Assembly (NCBI GenBank): GCA_025655595.1
Contig: JAHXIO010000001.1
Coordinates: forward strand, 620,001 to 684,000
Length of the DNA: 64,000 nucleotides
Reading direction: 5' to 3'
Source of the DNA: Candidatus Thiodiazotropha sp. (ex Monitilora ramsayi)
GTDB lineage: Bacteria > Pseudomonadota > Gammaproteobacteria > Chromatiales > Chromatiaceae
This document shows positions 685 through 16,473 of this stretch, one piece after another; position 1 is the first letter of the stretch, and every line of letters begins with the position of its first letter. The translations under genes were made by a program, and so were the position numbers. The notes below the pieces were generated by a model. It did no database searches. It saw only the letters and a list, made by a program, of their open reading frames with translations, and had not been told where the DNA came from.

Positions 685-2136
685 ATGGATCAGAGAGAGC
701 TCCTGATATCGCTCACATTCGCCGGCTATCTGCTGGTCATATTGGTCATCGGCGTCATCGCCTGGCACCGCACCCGCAACCTCTCCGATTTTGTCTTGGG
801 CGGACGCCGCCTCGGCAGTTGGGTCACTGCACTCAGCGCCAGCGCCTCCGACATGAGTGGCTGGCTACTGCTGGGTCTACCGGGATATGCCTATGTGGCG
901 GGGCTGGAGTCCTTCTGGCTCGCCTTCGGTCTGCTGGTGGGTACCTGGCTCAACTGGCGCCTGGTCGCTGGTCGCCTGCGTATCGCCTCGGAAGAGGCTG
1001 GCAACGCGTTGACCCTGCCGCAATATCTGTCGAACCGGTTTCACGACGACAGCGGTCTGATACGGGTGGTCTCCTCACTCTTCGTGCTGCTCTTCTTTCT
1101 CTTCTACACCAGCTCCGGACTGGTCGCCGGCGGCAAGCTGTTCGAGGCGGTCTTCGGCTTGCCCTATCTGTGGGCCGTCAGCCTGGGGACGCTGACCATT
1201 ATTCTCTATACCGCCTTCGGCGGTTTTCTCGCGGTCTCCTGGACCGATCTATTTCAGGGCCTGCTGATGGCAGCGGCGCTGGTGGCAGTGCCGCTCTTTG
1301 CAATGGATCTGACAGACGGCGGCGCTGGCGCCATCGCCACCATCCACGAACAGAACCCCGAACTGCTCGATCCCTTTACCAATAGCGACGGTGAGGCGTT
1401 GGGGATAATCGCCATCCTCTCCCTGCTCGCCTGGGGGTTGGGTTACTTCGGCCAGCCCCATATCCTGGCCCGCTTCAAGGCGGTGCGGGATGCCTCTCTG
1501 GTGCCACAGGCGAGGCGTATCGCGGTCAGTTGGGTCTTCCTCACGCTGACCGCCGCCTGCCTGGTCGGGCTGATGGGGATTCCGGTGTTCGAGACCCCGC
1601 TGGAGGATGCGGAGAAGGTCTTCATCCATCTGGTGGATCTGCTCTTCCACCCGTTGATCGCCGGTATCTGCCTGGCCGCTATCCTGGCGGCGGTGATGAG
1701 TACCGCCGACTCGCAGTTATTGGTCTCTTCGAGTGCCTTTACCGGCGATATCTACCGTGTCCTCTTTCGCAAAGGGGCAAACGAACGGGAACTGGTGCTG
1801 GTGGGACGCCTGGCGGTATTGACCATCGCCCTGGCCGCCTTTCTCCTGGCCATGAATCCGGAGAACAAGGTGCTCGACCTGGTGGCCTACGCCTGGGCAG
1901 GGTTCGGCGCCGCCTTCGGTCCCGCGGTGCTGCTCTCCCTCTACTGGCGTGGAATGAATCGTTGGGGCGCCCTGGCCGGGATTCTGGTCGGGGGTATCAC
2001 CGTGGTGGTGTGGAAACCCTTGGAAGGCGGTCTGTTCGATCTCTATGAGATTGTGCCGGGGTTTGTCGCATCGATGCTGGCGATCGTTCTGGTGAGTAGG
2101 TTGAGCCAGCCGAATTCATCGTCACCAGGGCGGTAG
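685..2136 (+). CDS. putP: Sodium/proline symporter family transporter (PutP-like)
   Basis: This 483-residue inner-membrane protein has about 12-13 hydrophobic segments and belongs to the sodium:solute symporter (SSS) family. Residues 53-60 (SASDMSGW) correspond to the PutP sodium/proline-site motif, with D56 and S58 at the positions of E. coli D55 and S57. A second conserved motif, MSTADSQLLVSSSAFTGD, lies near residues 338-355. Length is close to the 502 residues of E. coli PutP. The start at 685 is supported by a purine-rich GAGAGGAGAGG just upstream. It most likely imports L-proline with Na+, as nutrient or osmoprotectant. No putA is adjacent, so another small solute remains possible. It follows the photolyase-like gene closely. 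Confidence 0.88.
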   Translation: MDQRELLISLTFAGYLLVILVIGVIAWHRTRNLSDFVLGGRRLGSWVTALSASASDMSGWLLLGLPGYAYVAGLESFWLAFGLLVGTWLNWRLVAGRLRIASEEAGNALTLPQYLSNRFHDDSGLIRVVSSLFVLLFFLFYTSSGLVAGGKLFEAVFGLPYLWAVSLGTLTIILYTAFGGFLAVSWTDLFQGLLMAAALVAVPLFAMDLTDGGAGAIATIHEQNPELLDPFTNSDGEALGIIAILSLLAWGLGYFGQPHILARFKAVRDASLVPQARRIAVSWVFLTLTAACLVGLMGIPVFETPLEDAEKVFIHLVDLLFHPLIAGICLAAILAAVMSTADSQLLVSSSAFTGDIYRVLFRKGANERELVLVGRLAVLTIALAAFLLAMNPENKVLDLVAYAWAGFGAAFGPAVLLSLYWRGMNRWGALAGILVGGITVVVWKPLEGGLFDLYEIVPGFVASMLAIVLVSRLSQPNSSSPGR

Positions 2137-2320
2137 ATGGCACTAGGTTTAATCGTCGGTAACAGAGCTGACAAGTAGTGTGAGATTTAGCTTAAAACGG
2201 ACGTTCGTAGACGGCTATGGCGGATGTCTCTGATGCGACCTAAGCAGACTTTTCTGATGATGAAAATCACCGCCAGGGCGAAACCATAGCGGTGTTCTTC
2301 GGCTAATCTAACTGAGGGTC

Positions 2321-3097
2321 TTATGTCTTCTTTAACTGTTTACGGCTAGCAAAGCCAATACCGACTAGGCCTGTTGTCATGAGCAGGAGGGTAGTGGGTT
2401 CAGGAACTGAAGTTGTCGCAACCCATGCCCCGATTGGTCCAGGAAATCCAGGTCGATCAGTAGCGTCATCTGAAAGATAATGTAGGTCTGAGTTAAACAA
2501 CATAGTGGCATAATTATACGGATTATCCGGATTCATAAGATCGTGAGCCACCCAGTGATCATCCGCATTATCCATGGAAGGCACGACAGGCCCGCCGAAT
2601 CCACCTGGGCCCATGTTAGTGAATCCAAGCCCAGCGGTACGACCATTAAACACAAGGGCTGGTGTGAAGCCGCTCCAAAATGCCCCATCATTTAAATATA
2701 GTGTAGGCGTGAAGAAATCGGTGGTAAAAACATCATAGGCTATAAACGGCGTACTATAAGTCAAAGGATCAGTAGATGGATTGCCTAAATTGGCAAAATT
2801 AGTTTGAAATTTATCTACTGTTGCCATATCAGCCAAAGAATGTTTCAGGGTTGTTGTTTGCATTCCACTTGCCATGAACCAATCACTTGATCCTGCATAA
2901 TTTAGGTTATCAATAGCAGTAAGCTGATCTTCCCTGGTCATGCCAGTAAATTGATTTATTGATGGATACCAATAAAGATTGTTGTAAGTATCATAAACTA
3001 CCCTATCGCCCTCATATGTCTGATTGATCAATGCGGCTGAAGCATTACCGCCAATCAAGATGGCGCCTAAAGCCAATAAAGAGTGTACTCTTTTCAT
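2321..3097 (-). CDS. PEP-CTERM sorting domain protein
   Basis: The 258-residue product has an N-terminal Sec signal peptide (about residues 1-22, ending ASA) and a C-terminal PEP-CTERM signal: VPEP, then a hydrophobic segment (TTLLLMTTGLVGIGF) and a basic tail. The middle, with NLYWYPSINQF and NYAGSSDWFMAS, resembles the Lcl/DUF1566-like extracellular domain often found in PEP-CTERM proteins. Such proteins are exported and processed by an exosortase, often in extracellular-matrix-forming bacteria; no exosortase gene is in this window. A strong ribosome site (AAGGGGAGC) precedes the start. The gene is visibly richer in A+T than its neighbours and sits alone in sparse DNA, which suggests lateral acquisition. 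Its molecular role is unknown. Confidence 0.85.
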   Translation of the reverse strand: MKRVHSLLALGAILIGGNASAALINQTYEGDRVVYDTYNNLYWYPSINQFTGMTREDQLTAIDNLNYAGSSDWFMASGMQTTTLKHSLADMATVDKFQTNFANLGNPSTDPLTYSTPFIAYDVFTTDFFTPTLYLNDGAFWSGFTPALVFNGRTAGLGFTNMGPGGFGGPVVPSMDNADDHWVAHDLMNPDNPYNYATMLFNSDLHYLSDDATDRPGFPGPIGAWVATTSVPEPTTLLLMTTGLVGIGFASRKQLKKT

Positions 3098-3978
3098 GAT
3101 CTGCTCCCCTTAAACAGCGATTCCAACTCATTTAGTTCCCTGCAAAAAATACTCCATAAAATAAAACCATAAGATTTATAAGGATTTATTGATTTTTTTG
3201 TGAAGTCATAGTTACCGATATGTAAAAATTATCGACGTATTATTGTTCAACAAGCATGAATGGGCGCGCATGTCACACGCTGTCCGGATTTTAATTCTGA
3301 TTATCTGCACTGAAGGCCACACTTAGCCCAGGTCAATCATCAATTGACACTGAATCTGATACGAAATGTAAAATATTTCGACATTGGTTACATATTAGTT
3401 AGGTGTCTGCTTCAGGCGCTGACCATTCGTTGTTGTACAATTACATGACCGTCCGCTTCTGGCCGAAAGTAACCGTTTGGTTCTTCAGATCTGCCTGGTG
3501 TGTCTCTTAAGCGACCATAGCGAACATACTGCTCCTGCCGTTGGATCGTAGCTTTTATTCGCTCTATAGCATGGCCAAGTCAAATAGCGTCGAAATGAGA
3601 TACTGCATTCATTACGCAATTCTTCGGACAAAGGGCACTGTAATCAGGGCACGTTAACAATTTGAGGTGGAGTGGTTCCTACGCCATGTGTCGAAGGAGG
3701 CATCACTGAAGCCATTCTGGTTGCACAAGCCGCTTAGGGAACTCCCGCTTCAGCCTCCTACATGAAGCCAATGTTCTGTTCTTCTGATAATCGCTTTCAT
3801 GTCAGTCTCCCGCTCTGAAAAAGGACGCTACGAAGTTCAGGTTGGTGCGGTGATTGGGGACAGTTCAGAGGCCATCGGCCTGCCCGAAGCCACCACAGAA
3901 AACCTGTAAGTCATTTATCAAGTAACTCACCGGGGAAATCTGCCATTCAAGCAATCAACCGATAACCATGCTGAAAGG
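3098..3978. other. AT-rich intergenic region with no assignable gene
   Basis: About 0.9 kb between the PEP-CTERM gene and the mqo leader. No reading frame of convincing length or family similarity is seen. A 36-codon frame at 3799-3909 (start MSVSRSEKGR, end ATTENL) is open but has no recognised relatives and no good ribosome site. The left third is very AT-rich and should carry the PEP-CTERM promoter on the minus strand. The rest looks like decayed sequence. Confidence 0.5.
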
Positions 3979-4025
3979 ATGGTAAAAATCGGTAGAAAAA
4001 CTGCTTCTATCGTTGGAATTGGCGG

Positions 4026-4100
4026 ATATTGTCGACAATATTCCCTTATATCGCTGTGGATATCGATCCCAATAGCTAAATTTAACGTGAAATGTCGACA
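4026..4100. promoter_or_regulatory. Two TGTCGACA palindromes upstream of mqo (putative operators)
   Basis: A perfect 16-bp palindrome, ATATTGTCGACAATAT, occupies 4026-4041. A second TGTCGACA core is at 4093-4100, with centres 63 bp apart, about six helical turns. Both lie 75-150 bp before the chosen mqo start. The spacing suits a dimeric repressor or activator binding on one face of the helix, possibly of GntR type. The regulator is not identifiable from the window. Confidence 0.45.
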
Positions 4101-4173
4101 AATTTCATTTATATTGCAGTGCAGCATCAATACCCTACCCAAGTTACCGCTTGATGAATCTGGAGGCAGCCGT

Positions 4174-5700
4174 ATGACGATGCATAAGACAGATGTGCTT
4201 TTGATTGGTGGGGGGATTATGAGCAAGACACTGGCAATGCTGGTGACACAGCTCGATTCCTCCCGCCATATCACCTTGGTTGAGCAAGCGGCAACATTAG
4301 CCACTGAAAGTACACATGCCTGGAATAATGCAGGCACAGGGCACGCGGGTTACTGCGAACTCAATTACACTCCACAGCAAAGTAATGGTGATATCGCTAT
4401 TGAAAGAGCGCTGGGTATAAACGCCCGGTTCGAGGAGTCCCTGCAGTTTTGGAGCGGATTGGTTCGCAAAGGCGCTCTGTCGAAACCTTCGGCCTTTATC
4501 AATCCTGTGCCTCACGTGAGCTGGGTGGAGGGAAAAGAGAACGTCAGTTACCTAAAGAATCGTCAGAAAGCACTGGTCAGCCATCCTTTATTCGAAGAGA
4601 TGGAATATGCGGATGATCCAGCCACCCTAAAGGAGTGGTTACCACTGATGATGGCTGAGCGTGATATGGGGCAGCCCATGGCCGCTACACGTGTGGCACA
4701 CGGAACAGACATCAACTTCGGGGAGTTGACCCGCTCGATGGGTGAGCATTTGTCGCATGAGGAATCCGTCGACTATTGGCTCTCAACAACGGTCTCGGGA
4801 TTGAAGAAGGTTGGAGATCGCTGGCATGTGACGACCAAGCACGCGCTTGCAGGAACACGAACCATCGACGCACGTTTCGTATTTGTTGGCGCGGGTGGGT
4901 GTGCTTTGTCTCTGATGCAAAAGGCAGGCGTGGATGAGGTTCGAGGTTATGGCGGTTTCCCCGTTGCCGGAATCTGGCTCGCCAGTGAAAACATAAAAGC
5001 CGCGGCGACCCATAACGCCAAGGTCTATGGCATGCCACCTATTGGTGCGCCTCCCATGTCGGTACCGCATCTCGATACCCGCGTGATCGATGGACGCCCC
5101 GCATTACTCTTCGGGCCCTTTGCCGGTTTCACTACACGCTTTTTGAAAAAGAGTAGTTTCTTTGATTTGATCAATTCGGTTCGATCCCACAATCTCAAAC
5201 CCATGATGGAGGTAGCAAGAGAACATTGGGCGTTAACGCGTTATCTCATCAAAGAGGCCATGAGTTCTGGTGACCAACGCCTCGAACAGCTACGCACGTT
5301 TATGCCTTCGGTGCAGCCAGGAGAATGGCATCTTCGCCCCGCGGGTCAGCGAGTGCAGATTATCAAACTGGATGAGAAGGGACGTGGCAAATTGCAGTTT
5401 GGTACCGAGGTTATCAAAACAGCTGATCGCTCCTTGGCAGCCTTGTTGGGCGCGTCCCCTGGCGCCTCTGTCAGCGTGTCTGCCATGATGGATGTTATCG
5501 AGATCTGCCTACCTGAATTGATTCAGGGTGAAGCAAGACACCGCCTGGAAGAATTGATTCCATCCTATGGTCACTCTTTGGATGATGATCTCGACTTGGT
5601 TCATGCCGTGCGACGTTACACCTTAGAGACGCTGGCTCTAGATGACAGAAATCCTGCAGAAATTCCCGAACAAGATGCGTTTTTGCAAACTGGTAGTTGA
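4174..5700 (+). CDS. mqo: Malate:quinone oxidoreductase
   Basis: This FAD-dependent membrane-associated enzyme oxidises L-malate to oxaloacetate and passes electrons to quinone, replacing or complementing NAD-dependent malate dehydrogenase in the TCA cycle. The 508-residue product starts with an FAD-binding beta-alpha-beta motif (LLIGGGIMS, about residues 9-17). It carries Mqo signatures such as HAWNNAGTGHAGYCELNYTP, FVGAGGCAL, LLFGPFAGF and ASPGASVS. I chose the ATG at 4174 because TGGAGGC precedes it at 4161-4167 and the protein then begins directly before the FAD motif. The frame is open back to 3979, but that extension has no family similarity and contains the palindromic leader. Flanked by degenerate DNA on both sides and apparently monocistronic. 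Confidence 0.93.
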   Translation: MTMHKTDVLLIGGGIMSKTLAMLVTQLDSSRHITLVEQAATLATESTHAWNNAGTGHAGYCELNYTPQQSNGDIAIERALGINARFEESLQFWSGLVRKGALSKPSAFINPVPHVSWVEGKENVSYLKNRQKALVSHPLFEEMEYADDPATLKEWLPLMMAERDMGQPMAATRVAHGTDINFGELTRSMGEHLSHEESVDYWLSTTVSGLKKVGDRWHVTTKHALAGTRTIDARFVFVGAGGCALSLMQKAGVDEVRGYGGFPVAGIWLASENIKAAATHNAKVYGMPPIGAPPMSVPHLDTRVIDGRPALLFGPFAGFTTRFLKKSSFFDLINSVRSHNLKPMMEVAREHWALTRYLIKEAMSSGDQRLEQLRTFMPSVQPGEWHLRPAGQRVQIIKLDEKGRGKLQFGTEVIKTADRSLAALLGASPGASVSVSAMMDVIEICLPELIQGEARHRLEELIPSYGHSLDDDLDLVHAVRRYTLETLALDDRNPAEIPEQDAFLQTGS

Positions 5701-6122
5701 TTGGTCTAAGAGCGTAACGAAGCAGGTTTGGCTCGATGAGACATAGTCGTATTCGTTTCTGCGAGATCGATCCAGATCTGATCTGACACCGCACTTGAAA
5801 ATGAGAGTTACCCGTTTGATGGAGGTGCGAACTGACCATCAAAACCGAAAAGGGAACCCGCAGTTACCTCACCCAGTTCTCCATGCTGGATTTGCTCACG
5901 CCTCTCGACTCGCAAGCCGCTTTGATCGTGAAACCCCGGTCGACAACCAATTAGGTTGTTTCCAGTCGAGATTCCGGACTGAACGTCATTAGGGCCTTTG
6001 TTATTTTGTCACCTGCCTTGTTACGAGTGAGAACATCAGCCGGATTCAGGTGGTCTAATCGACGATGCCAATACAGACAGGAGTGGTTAGTGCTCATGTG
6101 AAAGCTTGTGGCCTCCCTGATA
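5701..6122. other. Non-coding or decayed region downstream of mqo
   Basis: No intact gene is supported here. Short frames exist on both strands, for example a plus-strand stretch ending near 5955 that reads KGTRSYLTQFSMLDLL and a minus-strand 62-codon frame at 5951-6139. Neither has a ribosome site or recognised family. With the two pseudogenes to its right, the region looks like an insertion/deletion graveyard. Confidence 0.45.
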
Positions 6123-6395
6123 TCACTCGACCGTTGCATTTACCTCACCGATGGATATGGTGATAAATTCAGAAATCGTATTGGCTGTATGCGGTATCTT
6201 TAACGATTCGATACGTTGCCTGATATTATCCAGTCAGTTATTGGATTCATCTCTATCCAATTCATAAAAGACTAAGGCAAATTCTTCGCCGCCAATTCTG
6301 AAGGCATAGTCACCAGGCCACCTCATTTTCGATAGAATCGTATGGCTAATGTCTGAGACCAGACGCGCATTTGCTGATAGTTCGAATTTATTTCG
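6123..6395 (-). pseudogene. GGDEF (diguanylate cyclase) domain remnant with internal stop
   Basis: Reading the minus strand gives a clear C-terminal GGDEF domain: ARLVSDISHTILSKM, then RWPGDYAFRIGGEEFALVF, with the GGEEF codons at 6279-6293. After an in-frame TGA at 6234-6236 the similarity continues in the same frame as LDNIRQRIESLKIPH and FITISIGEV, then a stop at 6123-6125. The N-terminal part of the domain and any sensor region are missing. This is a broken cyclase gene, distinct from the intact one near 55-56.5 kb. Confidence 0.75.
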
Positions 6396-6440
6396 TGGCG
6401 GCTTTCGAATCAGCGACGGTTTGCCGATAGTTTACGTGTA

Positions 6441-6584
6441 GTGGGTTGCGCCGAACATGCGGAAATAGATGCCGGATACTACCTGATGGACCACTACAAC
6501 CAATAGCAACCGTATCAGTTCAATGACGGTTTACCGCCGGTAAAGGCGGGAGAAAAACATCAACTACTGTCCAGGATTAGTTGA
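6441..6584 (+). pseudogene. IS3-family transposase (OrfB) C-terminal remnant
   Basis: The plus-strand frame reads AGYYLMDHYNQ, a TAG stop at 6504-6506, then QPYQFNDGLPPVKAGEK and LLSRIS before a terminal TGA at 6582-6584. This is the typical last 45-50 residues of IS3-family OrfB integrase-type transposases (YYxxMDHYNxxRPxQFNxGLPP). The DDE catalytic core, OrfA and the inverted repeats are not present, so the element is dead. It marks an old insertion next to the broken GGDEF gene. Confidence 0.72.
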
Positions 6585-6899
6585 ACACTACATACGTTCT
6601 ACCGTGAAAATAGGGTGTTTACCTACTAATCATCGCCCTTCATGCAGTCTAATTATCCCATTGTATAACTCTTATAACGGACATCAGGCCGCGGTTTGGC
6701 CAGGCGATGTTGCCGGCGAGGGGCGGTCCGTCAGGGGAACTAAAGTGAGCACTCGATGGGGGGTGGCGGCGGGTTTTTAATTCGCTCGCGGTGTGGAGAA
6801 TAATCCCTGCAGGGGTCCGGCCAACGGCCGCTCGAAAGGTACCCGACTAGCGGGTCACTGTTACGAGCGCAATATTGAAGACGGCTGCAGCTTTCTTAC
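6585..6899. other. Leader region of the sigma54 activator gene
   Basis: 315 bp between the IS remnant and the regulator gene. It is GC-rich with several short inverted repeats, for example GGCCAACGGCC near 6820. I see no open reading frame of interest and no convincing -35/-10 or -24/-12 promoter. It presumably carries the regulator's promoter. Confidence 0.35.
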
Positions 6900-8528
6900 A
6901 TGCCGGTTAAGGGAAAAACCAAAATGAAGCGAAAAGATGCTTTATCCGCCGGCGGACATCTGCCATCACAGCCCGTGGAATCCGCCAATGATTCACTGCT
7001 GAGTCAGGTCGCGGCCAGCTTCATTGTCGCGGAGAACGGGCGAACGACACCACCGTCAATGCCCAAGAACCATATCGAGCGCGTAGCTACCAAGACGGGT
7101 GAGTTGATGGAGGTTATTCACCGGTCGCGCCTGGGCCTGACAAGTCAACTCGACCGTACCGGTTACGCCCGTCTGATCACGGATATGTTGCAAGACGCGG
7201 GTTGCGCCGCCTGTGAGTACATCGTGAACCGCGAGTCTGTGCACTTCACCACCAGAAGTTGTGAATTCAGCCACTGCTCCATGGAATCGGGAGCCTGCCA
7301 TCTGGTCATCGGCGTCGTAGGATCCGTGGCCGCGCGAAATTTCGGCTACGCCAAGGTGGATCTGCAGCGCTTTTGTACCGGTGAAGAGTCTATTTGTGAG
7401 TGTCGTGTGGACCTGGACCCCAACGCGGCCGCGCATCGTCCGGGAACCGAATTTTCGGACGCGCCGGGGGCACTTGAGAATATCGCGGATAGTTTTGGCT
7501 GCAATTCGATAGCACAACCGCAGGCTGCTACAGGCAATGATCACCGACCCGATATCGTTGCCCGCTCGCCTCAGATGCAGCATATCCTGGACCTTGTGGA
7601 AAAGGTGGCGCCGACGCCCGCCACGATTCTGATCACCGGGGAAACGGGAGTCGGCAAGGAGTGTTTTACCCGTATACTGCATGCCCTGAGTGGTCGCCCC
7701 CATGATCGCTTCGTTGGTGTGAACTGCGGAGCGATCCCCGAAAACCTGATAGAGAGCGCCCTGTTCGGCCATGAGCGCGGCGCATTCACCGGAGCACATG
7801 CCAGGTACAACGGCTATTTCGAGCGCGCCAGCGGCGGAACCCTGTTTCTGGACGAGGTCGATTCCCTCTCACCGGCGGTACAGGTCCGCCTGTTGCGAGT
7901 CTTGCAGGAGGGAGAATACGAGCGGGTCGGCGGCCGCCAGACCCTGCGTAGCGGTGCACGCATCGTCGCCGCCACCAACGCACTGCTATCGGACATCGTT
8001 GACGCCGGCAGGTTTCGCCGTGATCTCTATTACCGTTTGAACGTGGTCAATATTCATGTCCCGCCGTTGCGCGAACGCCCCGACGACATTCCCGCATTGT
8101 CCCGGCACATTCTTGGAAAATTGAACCAGCGTTATGGGGGGCAAGTCACTGGATTGGCGCCCCTCGCCGAGCGCAGCCTGATGGCATACCATTGGCCCGG
8201 CAACGTGCGCGAGCTGGAGAACGTACTGGAGCGTAGTTATCTGTTTGCCTCCGGGTCCCGGCTGGATAATGTGTTGATCGACCTGCCGGCGACAACGAAT
8301 GTCGGCTCGGATACGCTGCCCTCACTGGCGCCAGTGAAGGAACCCCCCGGCTGGAAGGGGCGGAAGAAGACGACGATGCAGGACCTGGAGCGACAGGCGA
8401 TCGTCTCTGCGCTAAAACGGCATCGAGGCAATGTGGCGCGCGCAGCCGAATCCATGGGTTTCTCGCGTCGTGCGGTCTATCTGAAGGTGCACTCCTACGG
8501 CCTGGAACTACAGGCCTTCCGCGCCTGA
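6900..8528 (+). CDS. Sigma54-dependent transcriptional activator with Cys-rich V4R-like sensor domain
   Basis: This 542-residue enhancer-binding protein has three parts. Residues about 85-173 form a small-molecule-sensor-like domain resembling V4R (XylR/DmpR type) with many cysteines (C102, C105, C121, C126, C133, C159, C166, C168). Residues about 220-450 are the AAA+ domain with Walker A GETGVGKE (247-254), the sigma54-contact loop GAFTGA (294-299) and Walker B LFLDEVDS. The C-terminus (about 498-536) is a Fis-type helix-turn-helix. There is no receiver domain, so it probably senses a ligand or metal directly. It converges on the type II molybdoenzyme operon, whose alpha gene has a -24/-12 promoter, so it is the likely activator. 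The start is uncertain: AAGGGA precedes the ATG at 6924 (residue 9), which may be the true start. Confidence 0.88.
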   Translation: MPVKGKTKMKRKDALSAGGHLPSQPVESANDSLLSQVAASFIVAENGRTTPPSMPKNHIERVATKTGELMEVIHRSRLGLTSQLDRTGYARLITDMLQDAGCAACEYIVNRESVHFTTRSCEFSHCSMESGACHLVIGVVGSVAARNFGYAKVDLQRFCTGEESICECRVDLDPNAAAHRPGTEFSDAPGALENIADSFGCNSIAQPQAATGNDHRPDIVARSPQMQHILDLVEKVAPTPATILITGETGVGKECFTRILHALSGRPHDRFVGVNCGAIPENLIESALFGHERGAFTGAHARYNGYFERASGGTLFLDEVDSLSPAVQVRLLRVLQEGEYERVGGRQTLRSGARIVAATNALLSDIVDAGRFRRDLYYRLNVVNIHVPPLRERPDDIPALSRHILGKLNQRYGGQVTGLAPLAERSLMAYHWPGNVRELENVLERSYLFASGSRLDNVLIDLPATTNVGSDTLPSLAPVKEPPGWKGRKKTTMQDLERQAIVSALKRHRGNVARAAESMGFSRRAVYLKVHSYGLELQAFRA

Positions 8529-8618
8529 CCTGCTTTCTGCCCGTTCTATTGGCTAAGCCAGTCCTGCACTCGTGCGCCTGTCACCTGACCGTCTTCTGGG
8601 GCTGGCTGCATCCAAATA

Positions 8619-9374
8619 TTACCTTGAGGGTGTGCTAGAAGACACTGCACTAGTTTCAGTATGCTCCACCGTCGTGTTGACGACGATGCCAGCCTGGATT
8701 GATTTGACGTGCTCCAGTTCAGACAGGATGACGTCGTGTATCAAGTGGCCCAGGGCAACATAGAAAGGTATCCGGCAGCCCGTCTGCAACCGTTTGACGA
8801 ATCCTGGCAGCCACTGGGACAGCTGCTGTTGCAGGAAGTCCTTTTGCGCCCGCAGATAACCTTGCAGCAGTTCCTCCGTTCCCTCCTCATTCGCCTGATT
8901 TTCCTTGAAGGTCAGAAAATGCATAAACTCCAGTTCGGCGCTGAGATGATCCGGTACCTCCCGGCGGCCGTCCCCTTGACTCATGACCAAGCCAAAATGT
9001 TTGTAGTAACTACTGACACGTAGCATGTATTGGGTACGTTCACCGCCACGATAAATCCCCTCATAGAGTGGGCAGGGCGGCTCCGGGTATCCCACCTCAA
9101 AGCTTGCGGTGTAAAGGCTTTCGAATTCCTCGAACGGCATCTCCCGGAGCATCGGCAACGGCCCCAAACCGGACTCTGCGGTTACGGCCGGTAGGGTGGA
9201 GATATGGGGCAGGCACTCGATGCACTCTCCTATCTCGGCCTGATAGATTCCGTTTTTCAAGGCGGCGAAAATCTCTCGTGACGGATAGCGAAACCCCACC
9301 GCCAGCAACAAATACAACCGACTTCGGATGGCTGGCTCCGAGCGTAGTGTCTCGGCAGTGGTTGGTTCTGACAT
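8619..9374 (-). CDS. Type II DMSO-reductase delta subunit: TorD/NarJ-like assembly chaperone
   Basis: This 251-residue cytoplasmic, mostly helical protein resembles the dedicated chaperones of the TorD/DmsD/NarJ superfamily (DdhD, EbdD, SerD type). The segment with FEEFESLYTASFEVG and PPCPLYEGIY, and the later LSAELEFMHFLTF, are typical of the family. It would help insert the bis-MGD cofactor into the alpha subunit and hold it until Tat export. A perfect AAGGAGG lies before the start. It is the last gene of the four-gene operon, 99 bp after gamma. The placement after gamma follows the ebdABCD order rather than the ddhABDC, serABDC or clrABDC order as I recall them. Its end converges with the sigma54 activator 90 bp away. 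Confidence 0.85.
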   Translation of the reverse strand: MSEPTTAETLRSEPAIRSRLYLLLAVGFRYPSREIFAALKNGIYQAEIGECIECLPHISTLPAVTAESGLGPLPMLREMPFEEFESLYTASFEVGYPEPPCPLYEGIYRGGERTQYMLRVSSYYKHFGLVMSQGDGRREVPDHLSAELEFMHFLTFKENQANEEGTEELLQGYLRAQKDFLQQQLSQWLPGFVKRLQTGCRIPFYVALGHLIHDVILSELEHVKSIQAGIVVNTTVEHTETSAVSSSTPSR

Positions 9375-9473
9375 GGATGCCTCCTTCTGAAGCGTTGTTC
9401 GGGGTTTGCCTAATGGTGGCGGGAGGTAGTCGTTGGTTCGCCACCTGTCGCCATTCCGGGCATGCGGCCCCAG

Positions 9474-10232
9474 TTACTCGATCACGAGCCTGTCCCAGCT
9501 ACCGCGCACGTACTTGTTGCCGTTGCGCTCCTCTACATGGCCGTCCCACAGGGCATAAGCAATGGAATACTCCTGGCCGCGCACATAGCTCATCTGCTCA
9601 TTGGCATTCTCCGAGAGCATCTTGCGTCCCACGACCACGTCCCACACGCCTTGTGCGTGTTGGCCGCCCTGTACCAGGGTGAGCGCCGATGAACCGGGTG
9701 TGATCTGGACGCTTCCCTCGCCCACACCCGTGATGTTCTGCGGCCGCACCAGATCGGCGCGCCAGAAGATGATATTCACCGGGATCTGGAGGCTGCCCAT
9801 TTCGATACCCTGTTCCCCGGGGACCATACCCGTGAACGGGGATTCAATGGCCACGGCATCGGCGAAAAGCGTGGGATCGCCCACAGATGCGTCGGCGGTG
9901 CTGTCCGCCCACTTGAAGTTGAAGTAGATGAACTCCCCGTTATTGAGGGATCCCACCCACAGGGTCTTCTCGTTCGGCAGCCCCGGAGGTACCGGTACGT
10001 TTGTCAGCTCGTACTCCTGCTCCATCTCCACCGCCTCGTACCGGGCACTGTTCCAGACCGGATCGTTGGGGTCTTCGGAGATCGGCTGATTAACATGGAC
10101 GGAGACTACCACGCTGCCGTTGCCGTTATTCTGGGCAAGACTCGGATTGATCGGGCCGGTCAGGACGCCAGCCAGGGCAAGGAGCGGGACCCCCTTGGTC
10201 ATGGATCTAATTAGCTGCTTAATCTTAATCAT
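9474..10232 (-). CDS. Type II DMSO-reductase gamma subunit: heme b-binding, ethylbenzene-dehydrogenase type
   Basis: The 252-residue product has a Sec signal peptide (about residues 1-34, ending SLAQ). It matches the EB_dh heme-binding domain of EbdC/DdhC/SerC-type subunits: DPVWNSARYEAVEM at the front, FIYFNFKWAD in the core, and IPVNIIFWRADL and WDVVVGRKM further on. Known members ligate heme b through a methionine and a lysine; M145 (GIEMGS) and K204 (VGRKM) are plausible ligands here, by inference. It would sit in the periplasm with alpha and beta and pass electrons to or from a soluble cytochrome. A GGGAGA ribosome site precedes the start, 19 bp after the beta gene. Confidence 0.88.
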   Translation of the reverse strand: MIKIKQLIRSMTKGVPLLALAGVLTGPINPSLAQNNGNGSVVVSVHVNQPISEDPNDPVWNSARYEAVEMEQEYELTNVPVPPGLPNEKTLWVGSLNNGEFIYFNFKWADSTADASVGDPTLFADAVAIESPFTGMVPGEQGIEMGSLQIPVNIIFWRADLVRPQNITGVGEGSVQITPGSSALTLVQGGQHAQGVWDVVVGRKMLSENANEQMSYVRGQEYSIAYALWDGHVEERNGNKYVRGSWDRLVIE

Positions 10233-10251
10233 GGTCGTTGTCTCCCTACCG

Positions 10252-11304
10252 CTACGTCAGCTGAACTTGCTCGGTATCGGTTGTCGCCACCAGAATGCGC
10301 ACCAACTCGGAGTCCATGCCCTTGGCACGCTCGGTCTCCAGGATGTCAAAGATCTCCTCGATACGTGCTTCGCGCTGAGCCAGCGTTTGATTGCAATTGT
10401 CTCCAAACATCCTGGCGAGCACGCTCACCGGAATGCGGCCCTTGCTGTCGAGGTCGCCGTTGGCCAGATAGCCCGGCGGACTCATGGGCGGGATGTAGAA
10501 AGTGTTGGGCTCGGTGCCGAACTCCGGATGTAGACGCAGTGCCACACGCCAGTTGTTTACCAGCTTGTAGAGGTTGGACGCCTTGTTATCCCGGTAGGAA
10601 ACCCAACGGATACGGCCGACGCACTGGGTGACGCAGAAGTTTCCCTCACCCTGCTCGATACGCGGGTAACAGAATATGCACTTTTCCGACTTCCCGGTCA
10701 CCGGATTGAAGTAGATCTTCTTGTACGGGCAGCCTTGGACGCAGAAACGATAGCCGCGACACCGATCCTGGTCGATGAGCACGACACCGTCCTCCTCACG
10801 CTTGTAGACGGACCGGCGGGGACAGGCCGACACGCAGGGCGGATCCGAGCAGTGATTGCAGATCCGTGGTAGGTAGAAGTAGTAGTTATTGGGAAAGGCG
10901 CCCACGCCCACATCCTCGTCCCAGTTGGAGGCGTAGGCGTCGGGGCCATCGGGTGACGGAAAGGGGACGACGACCGATCTAGACGCGTTACCGCCTTCGG
11001 TTTTCAACACCTCCCCGTAGTTGTACTCCCACGGGGCGCCGTAGTCCCCTTCGATATCCGGCAGGGGCGTCAAAGCCGCCTCGTCGTCATTTTTCGGCTG
11101 GCAGGTACCGATGGTGGCGCCCGACTCCTCCCAGTTGCGGGGATAACCAAGACCCGGCATGGTCTCCACATTGTTCCAGTACTGGTACATCTGACCCTCG
11201 TTACGATCGGTCCACATGGTTTTGCAGGCCATGGTGCACGTGTGACAGCCGATGCACTTGTTCAGGTCGAAAAGCATCTGAACCTGTCTTTGTATCTTTG
11301 CCAT
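10252..11304 (-). CDS. Type II DMSO-reductase beta subunit: iron-sulfur protein
   Basis: This 350-residue ferredoxin-like subunit is of the NarH/DdhB/EbdB type. It binds iron-sulfur clusters that link the molybdenum subunit to the gamma heme. The first cluster motif is CIGCHTCTMAC (C17, C20, C23, C27). Later groups are CNHCSDPPCVSACP, CRGYRFCVQGCP, and CIFCYPRI with a distal CVTQC. The tyrosine in CRGYRFC replaces a cysteine, as the tryptophan does in NarH, which predicts three [4Fe-4S] clusters and one [3Fe-4S] cluster. It has no signal peptide and should be carried out by the alpha subunit's Tat signal. GAGGAGAGG precedes the start, 63 bp after alpha. Confidence 0.92.
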   Translation of the reverse strand: MAKIQRQVQMLFDLNKCIGCHTCTMACKTMWTDRNEGQMYQYWNNVETMPGLGYPRNWEESGATIGTCQPKNDDEAALTPLPDIEGDYGAPWEYNYGEVLKTEGGNASRSVVVPFPSPDGPDAYASNWDEDVGVGAFPNNYYFYLPRICNHCSDPPCVSACPRRSVYKREEDGVVLIDQDRCRGYRFCVQGCPYKKIYFNPVTGKSEKCIFCYPRIEQGEGNFCVTQCVGRIRWVSYRDNKASNLYKLVNNWRVALRLHPEFGTEPNTFYIPPMSPPGYLANGDLDSKGRIPVSVLARMFGDNCNQTLAQREARIEEIFDILETERAKGMDSELVRILVATTDTEQVQLT

Positions 11305-11367
11305 ATTCCTCTCCTCCTAACTCAAGACTGACTGCGCGATCTGCGATGGAATCCCTGCGGTTCGGGC

Positions 11368-14193
11368 CTAGGCATTGCCGCCCGCTCTGCGGATCTCGAC
11401 CCGCGTGTCGCGCTGGTTCCCCGTTGGTCCCCAATAGTTCAGGCGGAACTTCAGCTGACCATAGCCACCGACGATCTCGGTGGGCTTGATGCGGATGGTG
11501 ACCGGGGTCTGCCAGCCATTGTTGAGGAAATAGTGCTCCCAGCCGTGGTACATCATGGCCACGTTGTCCGGCAGGCGCGGCGCGATATTGAGGTGGGCCT
11601 CAAAGCTGCCGTGGCCGTTGAACACCTCGACCAGTTCGTTGTCCGCGAGACCGCGCTGTGCGGCCTCCGGCGGGCTGAGGTAGACAACCGGCCTGCCGCG
11701 CTGCAGGCGCAGCTGGAACTTCGCATCCCGCCAGGTGGAGTGGATGCTCCAGCGACCGTGCGGTGTCAGCCAGCGCAAGGGGTAGTCATCCACGTTGATG
11801 GGTCCCTTGGCGACCGGCAACTGCTCACCGAAATCCAGGAACCAGTCCTGATCGATATAGAACTGCTGGCGTCCCACCAGGGTGGTCAGCGGACGCAGGT
11901 TCTCGGTCATGCGCCGGAAGGTGGAATAGGCTTCGCCGTCCACGATGTCGCTGGTCCAGTCACGACTGGCCTGCAGGAAGCGTTGCGGGTGCTTGATGAT
12001 CGAGTTGGCCGAGCGCCTTTTCCTGATCGTGAGGCCGTTGGTCTCGGGTGATAGATCGAGCAGGTGCTGGCAGGCGGCCCGGTCTCCCCGAATATTCTCT
12101 CCGTGGGCGCCCGTGGTCAGATCGTCGAACAGGGTGGTGAGATCACGGGTGATGGTGTCGCCGTTGGGTACCGTATCGTTGTATATCAGCCCACGGCGCC
12201 CCAGTACCCTGGCCAGCCCCTTCCATATCCGCCAGTCTGTGCGGCTGTCGAATTGCTGGGGGATCACGGGTGTGAACGGATGTACAAAGGTGTGCAGGTC
12301 GGTAGTGGATAGGTTCCACTGTTCGTACCAGCTGGCCGCCGGCAACACGATGTCGGCGTACAGGGCCGTGGTATCCATGCGTGAATTGATATCCACGATC
12401 AGTTTCAGTTTGGGGTAGAGGTTGGCGAGCACATCCATGTTGCCCTTGGCCTGGTTGAGGTAGTTTGCACCCCAGACGAACAGCACTTCGGGACTGCGGT
12501 CATTGTTCACCGTCCTGGATAAAGGGTCGTAGGTGATGTTGCCCTTCGGCCAGACTGGCATCCAACCATTGTTGACACTCTCGACGATGTACTCACCCAC
12601 GTCCTTGGGCCAGAGGTCGTCCACATCCGATGCCACGTCACCATGGATGTAGGTCCAAAGGGTCGTATTCTGGAACCGCTGCCGTGCTCGGCTCAGGGGG
12701 AAAGCGAACTCGAAAAAACCCTCCTCAGCCCACAGCTTCTCCTGACCCACGTAGTGATCGAAGCCACCACCCGGATGTCCGACACAACCGCACAATGCCG
12801 GCAGCAGCATCTGGGCCCGGTTAATGAGATCGTTGTGGTAGTAGTGGTTAGTACCTGCGCCCTCTATCACGCGTGCCCGTGGCGCGGCGACGGCAAATTC
12901 CCGGGCCACCTGGGCGATGATGTCTGCCTGCACGCCGGTGACACTCTGCATCGCGACAGGCGAATAATCGGCCAGGCTGTCGCGGAGCCGTTCAAACACC
13001 GGCAGGACCATCACGTTTCCGCTGAGCGTGGCAACCGTGTAGTTGCCCTCCAGGGCCGGGTCGACGTTGCCCAGGTCCAGGGTCCAGCTCCCCTGGCCGC
13101 TGGTGGGCTGAGGACCCGCCGGCTTTTCACCCAGGGTGCCGGGGGCGAGCACTGCCTGCTGGGTCATGTTGTCCCAGAAGTAGAACTTCTGGTCGCTGCC
13201 GCCGGCAACCACATCGCTTTCGCGCAGCAGCTTGTTGTTGTCGTTACGCACCAGCATGGGCATATCGGTGAACTGCCGCAGGTAGGCGGCGTCGTAGAGC
13301 GCCTCCAGGACGATGACATGCGACATGGCCAGGGCCAGATGCCCGTCGGTGCCGGGTGTCACATGTACGTGCAGGTCGGCATGAATCGTGGACGGATTGT
13401 ACTCCGGGTGGATGGAGACGATCTTGGTGCCCTTCATGCGGGCCTCGGTATAGAAGTGGGCGTCCGGTATCCGCGTCTCGACCACATTCGAGCCCCACAT
13501 GATGAGGTAGTCGGAGTTGAACCAATCGGCGGATTCACAGGAGTCGGTCTGTACGCCCCAGGTCATGGGTTCCCCCGGGGGCAGGTCGCAATACCAGTCG
13601 TAGAAACTGCACACCACGCCGCCGATCAGGTTGGCGAAACGGAAACCGCCGGCCAGCGTCAGGTGGTGCTTGGCGGGAATGGCGGAGAAGAAGGTGATGG
13701 CATCGGGCCCGGAGTGCGTGATCGTCTCCACCATTTGATCCGCGATGGCATTGAATACCTCGCCCCAAGTCGCACGGCGCCACTTGCCCTCACCCCGCGC
13801 CCCGACGCGCATCAGGGGATACTTCACCCGCTGCGGACCGTAGATATACTCCTTGTAGTTGGCGCCCTTCTGACAGCCCCGTGGATTGTAGGACGGGAGC
13901 TGATCGCTGATGGCAGGAAAGTCGGCGTATTGCTCCTCCTTGAACAGGATCCCGTTTTTGACATAGCCCTTCCAGGAGCAGGATCCGGTGCAGTTGATGC
14001 CGTGGGTGGTACGACCGGTCGAATCCCAGGTGAACTGATCCCGGTAGAAATCCTCCCAGCCGCGGTAGGGATAAGCGCCTAAAGGATCATCGACCGGCTC
14101 CAGGAAGAACAGGCCGAAGGCATTGCTCGTCGCAGTCGATCCTAAAGCCGCGACGGTTGCTTTCAGAAAATTGCGTCTAGTCCAGTCGCTCAT
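11368..14193 (-). CDS. Type II DMSO-reductase alpha subunit: periplasmic molybdopterin oxidoreductase, substrate unknown
   Basis: The 941-residue catalytic subunit begins with a Tat signal (RRNFLKA, residues 6-12), so the folded complex is periplasmic. The FS0 cluster ligands are H64, C68, C72 and C107, with His first as in NarG and the type II group. The segment SFYDWYCDLPPGEP (about 196-209) holds the expected aspartate molybdenum ligand (probably D199). The segment TDSCESADWF is also typical of the group. Length fits EbdA, DdhA, SerA and ClrA (about 910-980 residues), not the 1,200-residue NarG. Gene order and the gamma subunit favour the ethylbenzene/steroid-dehydrogenase branch, but selenate, chlorate, nitrate or dimethylsulfide activity cannot be excluded. 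A GGAGG site precedes the ATG, and a sigma54 promoter lies about 80 bp upstream. Confidence 0.9.
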   Translation of the reverse strand: MSDWTRRNFLKATVAALGSTATSNAFGLFFLEPVDDPLGAYPYRGWEDFYRDQFTWDSTGRTTHGINCTGSCSWKGYVKNGILFKEEQYADFPAISDQLPSYNPRGCQKGANYKEYIYGPQRVKYPLMRVGARGEGKWRRATWGEVFNAIADQMVETITHSGPDAITFFSAIPAKHHLTLAGGFRFANLIGGVVCSFYDWYCDLPPGEPMTWGVQTDSCESADWFNSDYLIMWGSNVVETRIPDAHFYTEARMKGTKIVSIHPEYNPSTIHADLHVHVTPGTDGHLALAMSHVIVLEALYDAAYLRQFTDMPMLVRNDNNKLLRESDVVAGGSDQKFYFWDNMTQQAVLAPGTLGEKPAGPQPTSGQGSWTLDLGNVDPALEGNYTVATLSGNVMVLPVFERLRDSLADYSPVAMQSVTGVQADIIAQVAREFAVAAPRARVIEGAGTNHYYHNDLINRAQMLLPALCGCVGHPGGGFDHYVGQEKLWAEEGFFEFAFPLSRARQRFQNTTLWTYIHGDVASDVDDLWPKDVGEYIVESVNNGWMPVWPKGNITYDPLSRTVNNDRSPEVLFVWGANYLNQAKGNMDVLANLYPKLKLIVDINSRMDTTALYADIVLPAASWYEQWNLSTTDLHTFVHPFTPVIPQQFDSRTDWRIWKGLARVLGRRGLIYNDTVPNGDTITRDLTTLFDDLTTGAHGENIRGDRAACQHLLDLSPETNGLTIRKRRSANSIIKHPQRFLQASRDWTSDIVDGEAYSTFRRMTENLRPLTTLVGRQQFYIDQDWFLDFGEQLPVAKGPINVDDYPLRWLTPHGRWSIHSTWRDAKFQLRLQRGRPVVYLSPPEAAQRGLADNELVEVFNGHGSFEAHLNIAPRLPDNVAMMYHGWEHYFLNNGWQTPVTIRIKPTEIVGGYGQLKFRLNYWGPTGNQRDTRVEIRRAGGNA

Positions 14194-14273
14194 TGTTATG
14201 CCTCCAGACGATGGTGATTGCTCCAGGGCGTGTCGTTACTGAAGCTCTGTATGATTTCCCTGGCAAAAGAGAG

Positions 14274-14288
14274 GCAAACACCGCGCCA
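14274..14288 (-). promoter_or_regulatory. Sigma54 (-24/-12) promoter of the molybdoenzyme operon
   Basis: On the minus strand this reads TGGCGCGGTGTTTGC, matching the consensus TGGCACG-N4-TTGC at all but one position, with correct GG-N10-GC spacing. The -12 element is about 81 bp before the alpha start codon, leaving a leader of about 70 nt. It agrees with the sigma54 activator gene at the other end of the locus. Confidence 0.75.
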
Positions 14289-14306
14289 AGAGAAATTACT
14301 CTTAAC

Positions 14307-14319
14307 TATCAGTAGGTTA
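14307..14319 (+). promoter_or_regulatory. IHF-like site between sigma54 promoter and upstream dyads
   Basis: TATCAGTAGGTTA matches the IHF consensus WATCAANNNNTTR at all but one specified position. It lies about 20 bp upstream of the -24 box and before the dyad cluster, where IHF normally bends DNA to bring an enhancer-bound activator to sigma54 polymerase. The consensus is loose, so chance matches occur. Confidence 0.4.
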
Positions 14320-14409
14320 CAAAATACCATCAGTGTGTGGGAGCAACGCCTGGGCGCTGAACACAATGGGCAACTCAGATATTATCCTTAACAAACAATA
14401 CCTTAGCGC

Positions 14410-14448
14410 TGTGAAAAAAATTTCACAGATGTGAAGTTATTTGCACAG
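14410..14448. promoter_or_regulatory. Clustered TGTGAAA dyads (putative enhancer for the sigma54 activator)
   Basis: Three alternating half-sites form two overlapping dyads: TGTGAAA-N4-TTTCACA at 14410-14427, then TTCACA-GA-TGTGAA sharing the middle arm. They lie about 120-160 bp upstream of the -24 box, the usual distance for an upstream activating sequence. The 8-bp spacer of the first dyad does not fit a standard CRP site (6 bp). Binding by the 6.9-8.5 kb regulator is inferred. Confidence 0.5.
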
Positions 14449-14607
14449 ATGGAAGAGGGTGGCGGCATCGACAAATTAACTGGCCGCAATTGGCCGCTTT
14501 GAGCCATTCGCGAGATGGGTTTCTTGTGGCTTCAAGCGTCCGCTTTGCAATGTAGGTTCGACCTGGCCTGGTACTGCCAGTCAGTTCAAGTCTGATCTGT
14601 CACACAC
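14449..14607. other. Rest of the intergenic region upstream of the molybdoenzyme operon
   Basis: No gene is seen between the dyad cluster and the end of the next minus-strand gene. A short direct repeat, TGGCCGC, occurs twice around 14480-14500. Otherwise nothing is recognised. Confidence 0.4.
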
Positions 14608-15426
14608 CTAGGGCAACACTTCGACCTTTACCCATACTGCCTCTCTCTGTTCGAGGCGTGTGGTTCCCCGCATGGTGATGTCCGATTCGCGCTGTTGCCG
14701 TTGACTGCTTAGGTTGACCAGGGGTATCCACTCGCCAATCTTTCCCGATACGCTGTTGCGGCTCTGCCGGCGGTCGATTGTCCGCCGGTCCGGCAGCGGG
14801 GTTTCGCGCTGGGTGGTGATCTCGATCCTGACCCGGTCACCGATCAGATGGGCGGTGGCGTAGAATCCCGAATCGATGTTGCGGTATTGGTAGTCGGCCC
14901 GGTAGCCGGGATAGGGGCCGGGTGCGTATCCGCCACCGGTGAAGAATGGTTGACTGGTACCGCTGACGATCAGTGTGGGCGATCCCTCCAGGGTCTGCAG
15001 CGTACGCACGCTGTCGTCCGTCTGCCGGGTCTCATACTGCTTGAGCCTGATGCCCGACTCGCCGGGACGGCCGATCTGCACCCTGCCGCGATCGGTATGG
15101 AGTTCGAAGCGGTCGTTGCTGCCGCTCATCGGTTGGGTGTCCCGTACATGGATCAGCAGACGCTGGGGCGGCCGGTCGAACTCGTGGAGAATTCTTCGAA
15201 CCTCCGCCATGCGTTCCGCCGATGTTCGAACGATCAATTGATTGTGCATGCCGGTGACGGTGCCGTTAGGACCGACAAAGGGTTGGATCAGGGGGATGAT
15301 CTCCTGGGGTGTCCTGCCTTTGAGTTCGAAAATCTCCATCTCCTCTGCCGCCGGCAGGGAGAGGCTGATGAGAGAGAGGCAGAGGAGCGTGAGTGCCGAC
15401 GCAACGGTTTTTATAAAGCAGCTCAT
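14608..15426 (-). CDS. Exported secretin N-domain-like (NolW-like) protein
   Basis: The 272-residue product has a signal peptide (about residues 1-26, ending LPAA). It is followed by a domain resembling the N-domains of secretins: EIFELKGRTPQEIIPLIQ, then GMHNQLIVRTS and RRILHEFDRPPQRLLI. That is the usual NolW/secretin_N fold, which packs into rings in type II, III and IV machines. The C-terminal half is not a secretin pore; it has basic, Gln/Arg-rich stretches and no amphipathic barrel. No other secretion genes are nearby, so it is an orphan periplasmic protein of unknown role. A downstream 97-125-residue membrane protein is not on the same transcript side. Confidence 0.65.
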   Translation of the reverse strand: MSCFIKTVASALTLLCLSLISLSLPAAEEMEIFELKGRTPQEIIPLIQPFVGPNGTVTGMHNQLIVRTSAERMAEVRRILHEFDRPPQRLLIHVRDTQPMSGSNDRFELHTDRGRVQIGRPGESGIRLKQYETRQTDDSVRTLQTLEGSPTLIVSGTSQPFFTGGGYAPGPYPGYRADYQYRNIDSGFYATAHLIGDRVRIEITTQRETPLPDRRTIDRRQSRNSVSGKIGEWIPLVNLSSQRQQRESDITMRGTTRLEQREAVWVKVEVLP

Positions 15427-16388: not shown

Positions 16389-16473
16389 CTGCTTCGACAA
16401 TCAGTCATCAGGCATTGAAATGAAACCAGCCAGGTACGGGCCTGACCGATTGTCCGTCACGATGATTGCCGTC

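What the first reader, a model, noticed from the sequence alone, without database searches (positions are those of the whole stretch)
8619..14193. Complete type II DMSO-reductase-family operon of unknown substrate in ethylbenzene-dehydrogenase gene order
Seen: alpha (Tat RR signal, H64/C68/C72/C107, NarG-like Asp segment), beta (four cluster motifs with CRGYRFC), gamma (signal peptide, EB_dh fold, M145/K204) and a TorD-like chaperone in the order alpha-beta-gamma-delta. Established: this group oxidises or reduces ethylbenzene, steroids, p-cymene, dimethylsulfide, selenate or chlorate in the periplasm, and the order matches ebdABCD as I recall it, not ddh, ser or clr (ABDC). Inferred: a hydrocarbon- or sterol-hydroxylating, or novel oxyanion-reducing, enzyme in a bacterium whose other genes look like an ordinary aquatic gammaproteobacterium.
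Basis: partly seen in the sequence, partly recalled or inferred. Interest (0 to 1): 0.75.

Follow-up and report, generated by a model that had tools for sequence, protein, structure and literature searches.

The report
Periplasmic nitrate-reductase operon, archaeal type
This four-gene set most likely makes a nitrate-reducing enzyme that works outside the inner membrane of a denitrifying bacterium; it resembles the nitrate reductases of salt-loving archaea and is probably not the hydrocarbon-attacking enzyme that its gene order suggested.

Summary
The operon is real: alpha (Tat motif, FS0 and Mo ligands), beta (four cluster motifs), gamma (EB_dh haem b) and a TorD-like chaperone, all intact. 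The hydrocarbon/sterol reading is not supported. Alpha is nearest to uncharacterised acidobacterial and other bacterial proteins (48-53%), then haloarchaeal NarG and PcrA (about 47%); EbdA is 32%, ClrA 36%. A well-supported branch separates it from EbdA/ClrA, though the constrained-tree test is marginal (p 0.044). At seven active-site and gate positions it carries W-F-Y-D-Q-T-E, as do 64 of 88 aligned rows, including haloarchaeal NarG and the host's own NarG. The PcrA Trp gate and the EbdA pocket residues are absent. The order alpha-beta-gamma-chaperone is also that of haloarchaeal nar, so it does not diagnose ebd. The host has Nar, Nap and a cd1 protein, but no chlorite dismutase was found. 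The operon lies in a 12.4-kb segment missing from two sister genomes, with a sigma-54-type site, paired palindromes (the exact one unique in the genome) and an adjacent sigma-54 activator gene. Best reading: anchorless periplasmic NarGH-type nitrate reductase with a haem b subunit. Nitrite oxidation is not excluded. New member of a known kind.

The parts
11368..14193 (-). alpha (NarG/PcrA-type catalytic subunit, 941 aa), Tat motif TRRNFLK, FS0 ligands H64/C68/C72/C107, Mo ligand D203, gate F197-Y198-E485
10252..11304 (-). beta (iron-sulfur subunit, 350 aa), four cluster motifs, CRGYRFC in place of the NarH CRGWRMC
9474..10232 (-). gamma (EB_dh haem b subunit, 252 aa), probable haem ligands M145 and K240, N-terminal signal peptide by inspection
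8619..9374 (-). TorD/NarJ-like assembly chaperone (251 aa)
14274..14289 (-). sigma-54-type -24/-12 site TTGGCGCGGTGTTTGC, 94 bases upstream of the alpha ATG
   Evidence: pattern written after the site had been read
14410..14447 (.). two adjacent palindromes (14410-14427 exact TGTGAA-N6-TTCACA, 14430-14447 with one mismatch), candidate activator sites 217-254 bases upstream of alpha
6900..8528 (+). sigma-54-dependent activator (542 aa) with a Cys-rich N-terminal region akin to MetOD1-bearing regulators; probable regulator of the operon
2121..14590 (.). segment of about 12.4 kb, holding the operon, the activator, a malate:quinone oxidoreductase and a PEP-CTERM protein, absent at the same site in G402 and G415
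   Evidence: ends approximate

Best explanation
A periplasmic, anchorless nitrate reductase of the haloarchaeal/bacterial periplasmic NarGH kind. Alpha folds in the cytoplasm with its chaperone, takes up Mo-bisMGD and FS0 and is exported by Tat, probably with beta as passenger; gamma is exported separately (inferred). In the periplasm electrons enter at the gamma haem b (M145/K240), pass through the beta clusters and FS0 to the Mo centre (D203), and nitrate is reduced to nitrite behind a Phe-Tyr-Glu gate. The donor is probably a soluble c-type cytochrome or a NapC/bc1-type quinol oxidase encoded elsewhere, because no Rieske/cytochrome b module lies in the operon (inferred). Transcription is probably switched on by the neighbouring sigma-54 activator acting from the paired palindromes on the -24/-12 site (inferred). 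Shown: genes, family, residues, neighbourhood, sites. Inferred: substrate, direction, donor, regulation.
For: Seven-position nitrate-reductase signature WFYDQTE, shared with 35 haloarchaeal rows, 25 acidobacterial-like rows, 2 partial rows and the host's own NarG (64 of 88 with the window). Gate Glu and FS0-side Trp as described for NarG against Trp and His in PcrA (PMC8301774 section 12). His450 in the column of NarG His546. Asn67 at the proposed substrate residue, Ile in EbdA (PMC8387239 passages). Motif Y-4x-D-11x-QT, not the QM or QN given for Nitrotoga and Nitrospira NXR. Trees. Same gene order and EB_dh gamma in haloarchaeal nar loci. Host has NarG and NapA and a cd1 protein; no chlorite dismutase.
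Against: No assay. The nearest relatives (48-53%) are uncharacterised. Nitrate reduction would be redundant with Nar and Nap. Related enzymes accept several oxyanions: PMC8301774 reports nitrate, chlorate and perchlorate activity for haloarchaeal Nar and nitrate activity for PcrAB, so residues do not fix the substrate. The AU test against grouping with EbdA/ClrA is only marginal (p 0.0444). The window's branch is long and its partner L054 is a single bin.
Confidence: 0.72

Rival explanations
1. A periplasmic nitrite oxidoreductase of the Candidatus Nitrotoga type, oxidising nitrite to nitrate and passing electrons through gamma to a high-potential cytochrome c.
For: Nitrotoga NXR is described as a soluble periplasmic complex: loci coding for NxrA (Tat), NxrB, a putative NxrC with a haem site, a Sec signal and no membrane helix, and a chaperone, in a clade with periplasmic NARs (PMC6050957 section 9). 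Anammox NXR-C has the same Met/Lys haem as EbDH (PMC8387239 passages). NXRs are reversible.
Against: The motif ends QT, not QM or QN. FS0 has the His-x3-Cys-x3-Cys pattern of NAR, whereas anammox NXR uses three Cys and an Asp. The host looks like a denitrifier. No Nitrotoga sequence could be placed in the tree.
Confidence: 0.12
2. A reductase for another oxyanion (perchlorate, chlorate, selenate, bromate).
For: PcrA is the closest solved structure (845.7 and 841.3 bits against about 520 for NarG). Within the family, strains are reported to respire selenate andchlorate (PMC5052931 passages), and family members encode Trp-gate PcrA-type proteins (L023/L102 and L024). Haloarchaeal Nar also reduces chlorate.
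Against: Glu instead of the PcrA Trp gate; the better-matching chain 5e7o carries Glu at that position where 4ydd has Trp. No chlorite dismutase family match in the genome. Gamma is EB_dh, not the multihaem PcrC-like protein found beside the Trp-gate enzymes. Clr/Ser-type rows lie on the other side of the tree.
Confidence: 0.11
3. A hydrocarbon or sterol hydroxylase of the ethylbenzene dehydrogenase kind.
For: Gene order as recalled for ebdABCD; gamma aligns with EbdC (61.3 bits); beta aligns with EbdB nearly as well as with PcrB (328.8 against 341.3 bits); an adjacent sigma-54 activator.
Against: EbdA equivalog 389.5 against 2000 bits; 32% identity; EbdA Trp87 has no counterpart, His192 is Ile172, Lys450 is His450, Trp481 is Tyr481 (that these residues act in EbdA catalysis is recalled); Asn67 where EbdA has Ile; trees.
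Confidence: 0.02

Closest known systems
Haloarchaeal respiratory nitrate reductase NarGH and its EB_dh-like Orf7 (Haloferax, Haloarcula)
   Same: About 47% identity in alpha (Haloferax denitrificans L077), identical seven-position signature, same order alpha-beta-gamma-chaperone, Met and Lys in gamma
   Different: Haloarchaeal loci begin with Rieske and cytochrome b genes, absent here; His450 here against Asp in all 35 haloarchaeal rows
Acidobacterial and similar NarG-like operons with a six-haem cytochrome c (uncharacterised)
   Same: Closest alpha sequences (up to 53%), same signature, same core gene order
   Different: They carry Rieske, cytochrome b and a six-haem cytochrome c upstream
Candidatus Nitrotoga nitrite oxidoreductase
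   Same: Soluble periplasmic complex with haem-binding NxrC and chaperone, in a clade with periplasmic NARs (from the paper)
   Different: Q-T instead of Q-M in the Mo motif; sequence itself not compared here
Perchlorate reductase PcrAB (Azospira)
   Same: 46.6% identity in alpha; best solved structure
   Different: Glu instead of Trp gate, Trp instead of His by FS0, Thr instead of Gly after the Gln; EB_dh gamma
Ethylbenzene dehydrogenase EbdABC
   Same: Fold family, cluster pattern, haem b gamma with Met and Lys, gene order as recalled
   Different: 32% identity in alpha; EbdA pocket residues not kept

Membership tests
Type II DMSO reductase family (TIGR03479) | alpha above the curated cut-off | tested here: met
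   1054.8 against 984.75 bits
Type II DMSO reductase family (TIGR03479) | Asp Mo ligand and His-x3-Cys-x3-Cys FS0 pattern | tested here: met
   D203, H64/C68/C72/C107
Haloarchaeal-type periplasmic NarGH | gate Phe-Tyr-Glu, Trp by FS0, Mo motif ending QT | tested here: met
   WFYDQTE
Haloarchaeal-type periplasmic NarGH | alpha grouping with haloarchaeal NarG | tested here: inconclusive
   same side of the supported branch as haloarchaeal NarG, but pairs with L054 and sits nearer PcrA-type, acidobacterial-like and NarG rows (94 SH-aLRT; 99/96)
Haloarchaeal-type periplasmic NarGH | Rieske/cytochrome b module in the operon | tested here: not met
   no such gene in window 1-20000; so it is not filed as that complete system
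Haloarchaeal-type periplasmic NarGH | nitrate reductase activity | not testable with these tools
   needs assay
Ethylbenzene dehydrogenase (NF042978 equivalog) | score above the equivalog cut-off | tested here: not met
   389.5 against 2000
Ethylbenzene dehydrogenase (NF042978 equivalog) | EbdA pocket residues Trp87, His192, Lys450, Trp481 (roles recalled) | tested here: not met
   gap, Ile172, His450, Tyr481
Perchlorate reductase PcrAB | Trp gate | tested here: not met
   Glu485
Perchlorate reductase PcrAB | chlorite dismutase in the genome | tested here: not met
   PF06778: 0 matches at E 0.001
Nitrotoga-type NXR | Mo motif ending QM | tested here: not met
   QT
Nitrotoga-type NXR | clade with Nitrotoga NxrA | not tested
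   no Nitrotoga sequence could be identified in the collections reached

The most novel reading that the evidence does not exclude
The complex works as a reversible nitrate/nitrite enzyme coupled only to soluble high-potential cytochromes. It would let a denitrifying bacterium of the Sedimenticolaceae oxidise nitrite in the periplasm when a good electron sink is present and reduce nitrate otherwise, under a dedicated Cys-rich sigma-54 sensor.
Probability: 0.1. Interest if true: 0.6.

Novelty: new member of a known kind. Interest (0 to 1): 0.33.

Why it matters
It corrects a tempting annotation: an EB_dh gamma subunit and the order alpha-beta-gamma-chaperone do not mean hydrocarbon oxidation. 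It adds an anchorless, probably sigma-54-controlled gammaproteobacterial member to the thinly assayed periplasmic Nar/Nxr group, in a host that already has Nar and Nap, and makes the direction of catalysis in that group testable.

Tried and rejected
Hydrocarbon hydroxylase,chlorate or selenate reductase and Nitrotoga-type NXR were each tested on residues and context and placed behind nitrate reduction (see rivals). Gene order as evidence for ebd was rejected because haloarchaeal nar loci share it. K204 as haem ligand was rejected in favour of K240.

Island: I looked for a mobile-element signature. Three two-copy direct-repeat families were found in window 2050-14800, none pairing the two ends. 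Overall GC equals the rest (0.547 both) and the tetranucleotide distance (0.146) lies within that of 19 other segments (0.085-0.197); within the segment GC is 0.44-0.51 in most of 2-7 kb and about 0.55-0.62 after that. 'Inserted here' and 'lost in both sisters' are both open.

Regulatory sites: the palindrome pattern with up to three mismatches is not in excess in the window (18 matches against 22.5 expected), and one unrelated one-mismatch match lies at 51809. The sigma-54 pattern was written after reading the site; with one mismatch it gives 2 matches against 0.88 expected, one of them exact.

Print: papers holding an earlier description of an anchorless bacterial NarGH with EB_dh gamma were looked for. 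The listings returned the Nitrotoga and Nitrospina NXR papers and haloarchaeal reviews; I saw no assayed gammaproteobacterial enzyme of this kind in them. One search was a poor query. PMC8387239 names a Beggiatoa nitrate reductase related to this group (passage). No claim of absence is made beyond these searches.

Host: the species was not identified. The family rests on G427, stated to be of the same family, sharing contig number and length (C109, 70620 bases) with Sedimenticola sp. BM503 PKUO01000109.1, which the tree tool labels Sedimenticolaceae. It is not likely to be S. selenatireducens AK4OH1, which is reported to have Clr-, Ser- and Pcr-like enzymes, whereas this genome has one match over the TIGR03479 cut-off.
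Full report
OBSERVATION. The window is bases 620001-684000 of contig C2 of a 4.68-Mb, 46-contig genome. The four ORFs exist as described, on one strand, with gaps of 63, 19 and 99 bases. Alpha is the only match in the genome above the TIGR03479 cut-off. Alpha passes its curated cut-off; for beta, gamma and the chaperone the type II family is the best NCBIfam match but stays below its cut-off. The N-terminus of alpha, MSDWTRRNFLKATVAALG, is a Tat motif by inspection.

WHAT ALPHA IS. Against solved structures alpha matches PcrA best (845.7 and 841.3 bits), then NarG (514-520), then EbdA (367). In the plasmid collection the best three records are haloarchaeal (44-46%); ClrA is 34% by tblastn and 36% in my alignment. 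A scan of the species-genome collection with alignment A1 gave 273 relatives, the best 80 kept. Nearest are a Gammaproteobacteria MAG, many Acidobacteria/Terriglobia, Omnitrophota, Eisenbacteria and a Clostridiales bin (48-53%), then haloarchaeal and PcrA-type proteins (42-47%), then Clr/Ser-type proteins (36-37%; that label is mine, from position and gene order). In the tree of 85 rows (quick method, SH-aLRT only) and in a careful tree of 28 rows the window joins Clostridiales L054 (97 and 97/95). Both lie inside a group of haloarchaeal Nar, acidobacterial-like, PcrA-type and NarG rows (100 and 100/99), with EbdA, ClrA and Clr/Ser-type rows on the other side. Holding the window with the latter five rows costs 23 log-likelihood units, p-AU 0.0444, which is marginal. 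Branches to EbdA, NarG and ClrA are long, EbdA was entered as two pieces, and no named SerA, DdhA, S25dA, CmdA or NxrA was available. PMC10100899 (passages) groups SerA, ClrA, DdhA, EbdA, S25dA and CmdA in one lineage.

ACTIVE SITE. At W74, F197, Y198, D203, Q215, T216 and E485 the window has WFYDQTE, as do 64 of 88 rows. Thirteen rows have HFFDQGW, one HFFDQSW and the crystallised PcrA HFYDQGW. The other nine (seven Clr/Ser-type rows, EbdA and a broken one) have neither. PMC8301774 (section 12 read in full) gives Phe/Tyr/Glu as the gate of haloarchaeal NarG, with Glu also in E. coli NarG, against Phe/Tyr/Trp in PcrA; Trp against His by FS0; and His546 of E. coli NarG replaced by Asp in haloarchaea. 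The window has His450 there, as do 24 of 25 acidobacterial-like rows, all 15 PcrA-type rows and the host's NarG; all 35 haloarchaeal rows have Asp. PMC8387239 (passages) names an Asn as proposed substrate residue, Ile in EbdA; the window has Asn67. At EbdA positions W87, H192, K450 and W481 the window has a gap, I172, H450 and Y481 (the catalytic roles of these EbdA residues are recalled).

OPERON ARCHITECTURE. Haloarchaeal loci read Rieske, cytochrome b, (small gene), alpha, beta, EB_dh gamma, TorD-like chaperone, so the order alpha-beta-gamma-chaperone is not peculiar to ebd. Ideonella clr is alpha-beta-chaperone-gamma. At least 15 of 94 sources mapped (window and 93 loci), and L034, have a six-CxxCH protein just before alpha, generally with Rieske and/or cytochrome b matches before it. 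One search picks ORFs by length and misses genes under long antisense ORFs; (six-frame profile search of the window's first 20 kb and ten loci) is firmer. There the window, L033 and L151 have the four genes without Rieske or cytochrome b matches. L033 also shows one stop-to-stop frame with two CxxCH motifs on the other strand, 7 kb downstream. L055 is a 5.7-kb contig and cannot tell. PMC6050957 (section 9 read) describes a soluble NXR with NxrC and chaperone in Nitrotoga. Met/Lys haem ligation is given for EbDH (PMC8840923, passages) and anammox NXR-C; the window has M145 and K240 in those columns.

REGULATION. An exact GG-N10-GC site starts 94 bases upstream of the alpha ATG. Two palindromes lie 217-254 bases upstream; the exact form of the first occurs once in the whole genome, with none for the reversed control. 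The neighbouring gene 6900-8528 encodes a sigma-54 activator. Its first 207 residues, with nine Cys, match no Pfam family. An own paralogue (L116) and homologues in G415 and G402 align with that region at 28%; L116 and the G415 protein carry Pfam MetOD1 (the G402 one was not scanned). No other genome among the 56 searched matched at E 1e-10. That this protein acts on this operon is inferred.

ISLAND AND DISTRIBUTION. In same-genus G415 the genes flanking window 2121-14585 adjoin directly; in G402 they are about 280 bases apart with other sequence between; flank identity is 79-83%. The G415 stretch stops matching beyond window 15883. Alpha was not found in any of 21 other same-genus genomes at E 1e-60. 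In the order, 11 of 210 genomes including the own one match at 1e-150: five family members have a 45-46% match and the rest 36-38%. Of the former, L023/L102 (G427) and L024 (G421) were read and have the Trp gate; G523, G524 and G528 were not read. In the class sample 4 of 369 including the own match at 1e-150, and in the phylum sample 1 of 398, the own, at 1e-100; only two candidates per genome were scored in those two. G721 is 52% identical with the same QT and Glu.

HOST CONTEXT. The genome has NarG (1934.6 bits, cut-off 1084.15) and NapA (1460.4 and 1416.1 bits, cut-offs 904 and 930.55), a cytochrome cd1 protein, and no chlorite dismutase match. This favours nitrogen over chlorine oxyanions; it also means nitrate reduction is no new capability for the host, so why the operon is kept is open.

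CONCLUSION. Shown: intact operon, family, neighbourhood in the tree, nitrate-type residues, regulatory sites as sequences, absence at the site in two sisters. Inferred: nitrate as substrate, direction, donor, control by the adjacent activator. Nitrate reduction is rated 0.72. It is a new member of a known kind; the most novel reading left open is reversible or oxidative work on nitrite.

Noticed in passing
L029 6961-12605 (G000 contig C3): Two MauG/CCP-type dihaem proteins followed by an arsenite-oxidase-type Rieske small subunit (TIGR02694, over cut-off) and large subunit (TIGR02693, 392.2 against 359.05): looks like an iodate reductase idrP1-P2-B-A arrangement (label recalled).
   Followed up: partly
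L028 3741-8323 (G000 contig C25): A 929-aa NapC/NirT tetrahaem protein fused to two EB_dh haem-b domains, next to a cytochrome cd1 protein and near a NosD-like gene (by eye): a possible quinol-to-periplasm electron conduit.
   Followed up: partly
L029 3551-5962 (G000 contig C3): An 803-aa protein with several cytochrome c domains and one EB_dh domain, close to a bd-oxidase subunit I-like protein.
   Followed up: no
window 2321-5700: The segment missing from the sisters also holds a PEP-CTERM protein and a malate:quinone oxidoreductase in lower-GC DNA; why they sit beside this operon is unexplained.
   Followed up: no
L034-L049, L052, L103, L108 and similar loci: Acidobacterial and other genomes carry Rieske, cytochrome b, six-haem cytochrome c plus NarG-like operons; I saw no assay of them in the few listings looked at.
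   Followed up: partly
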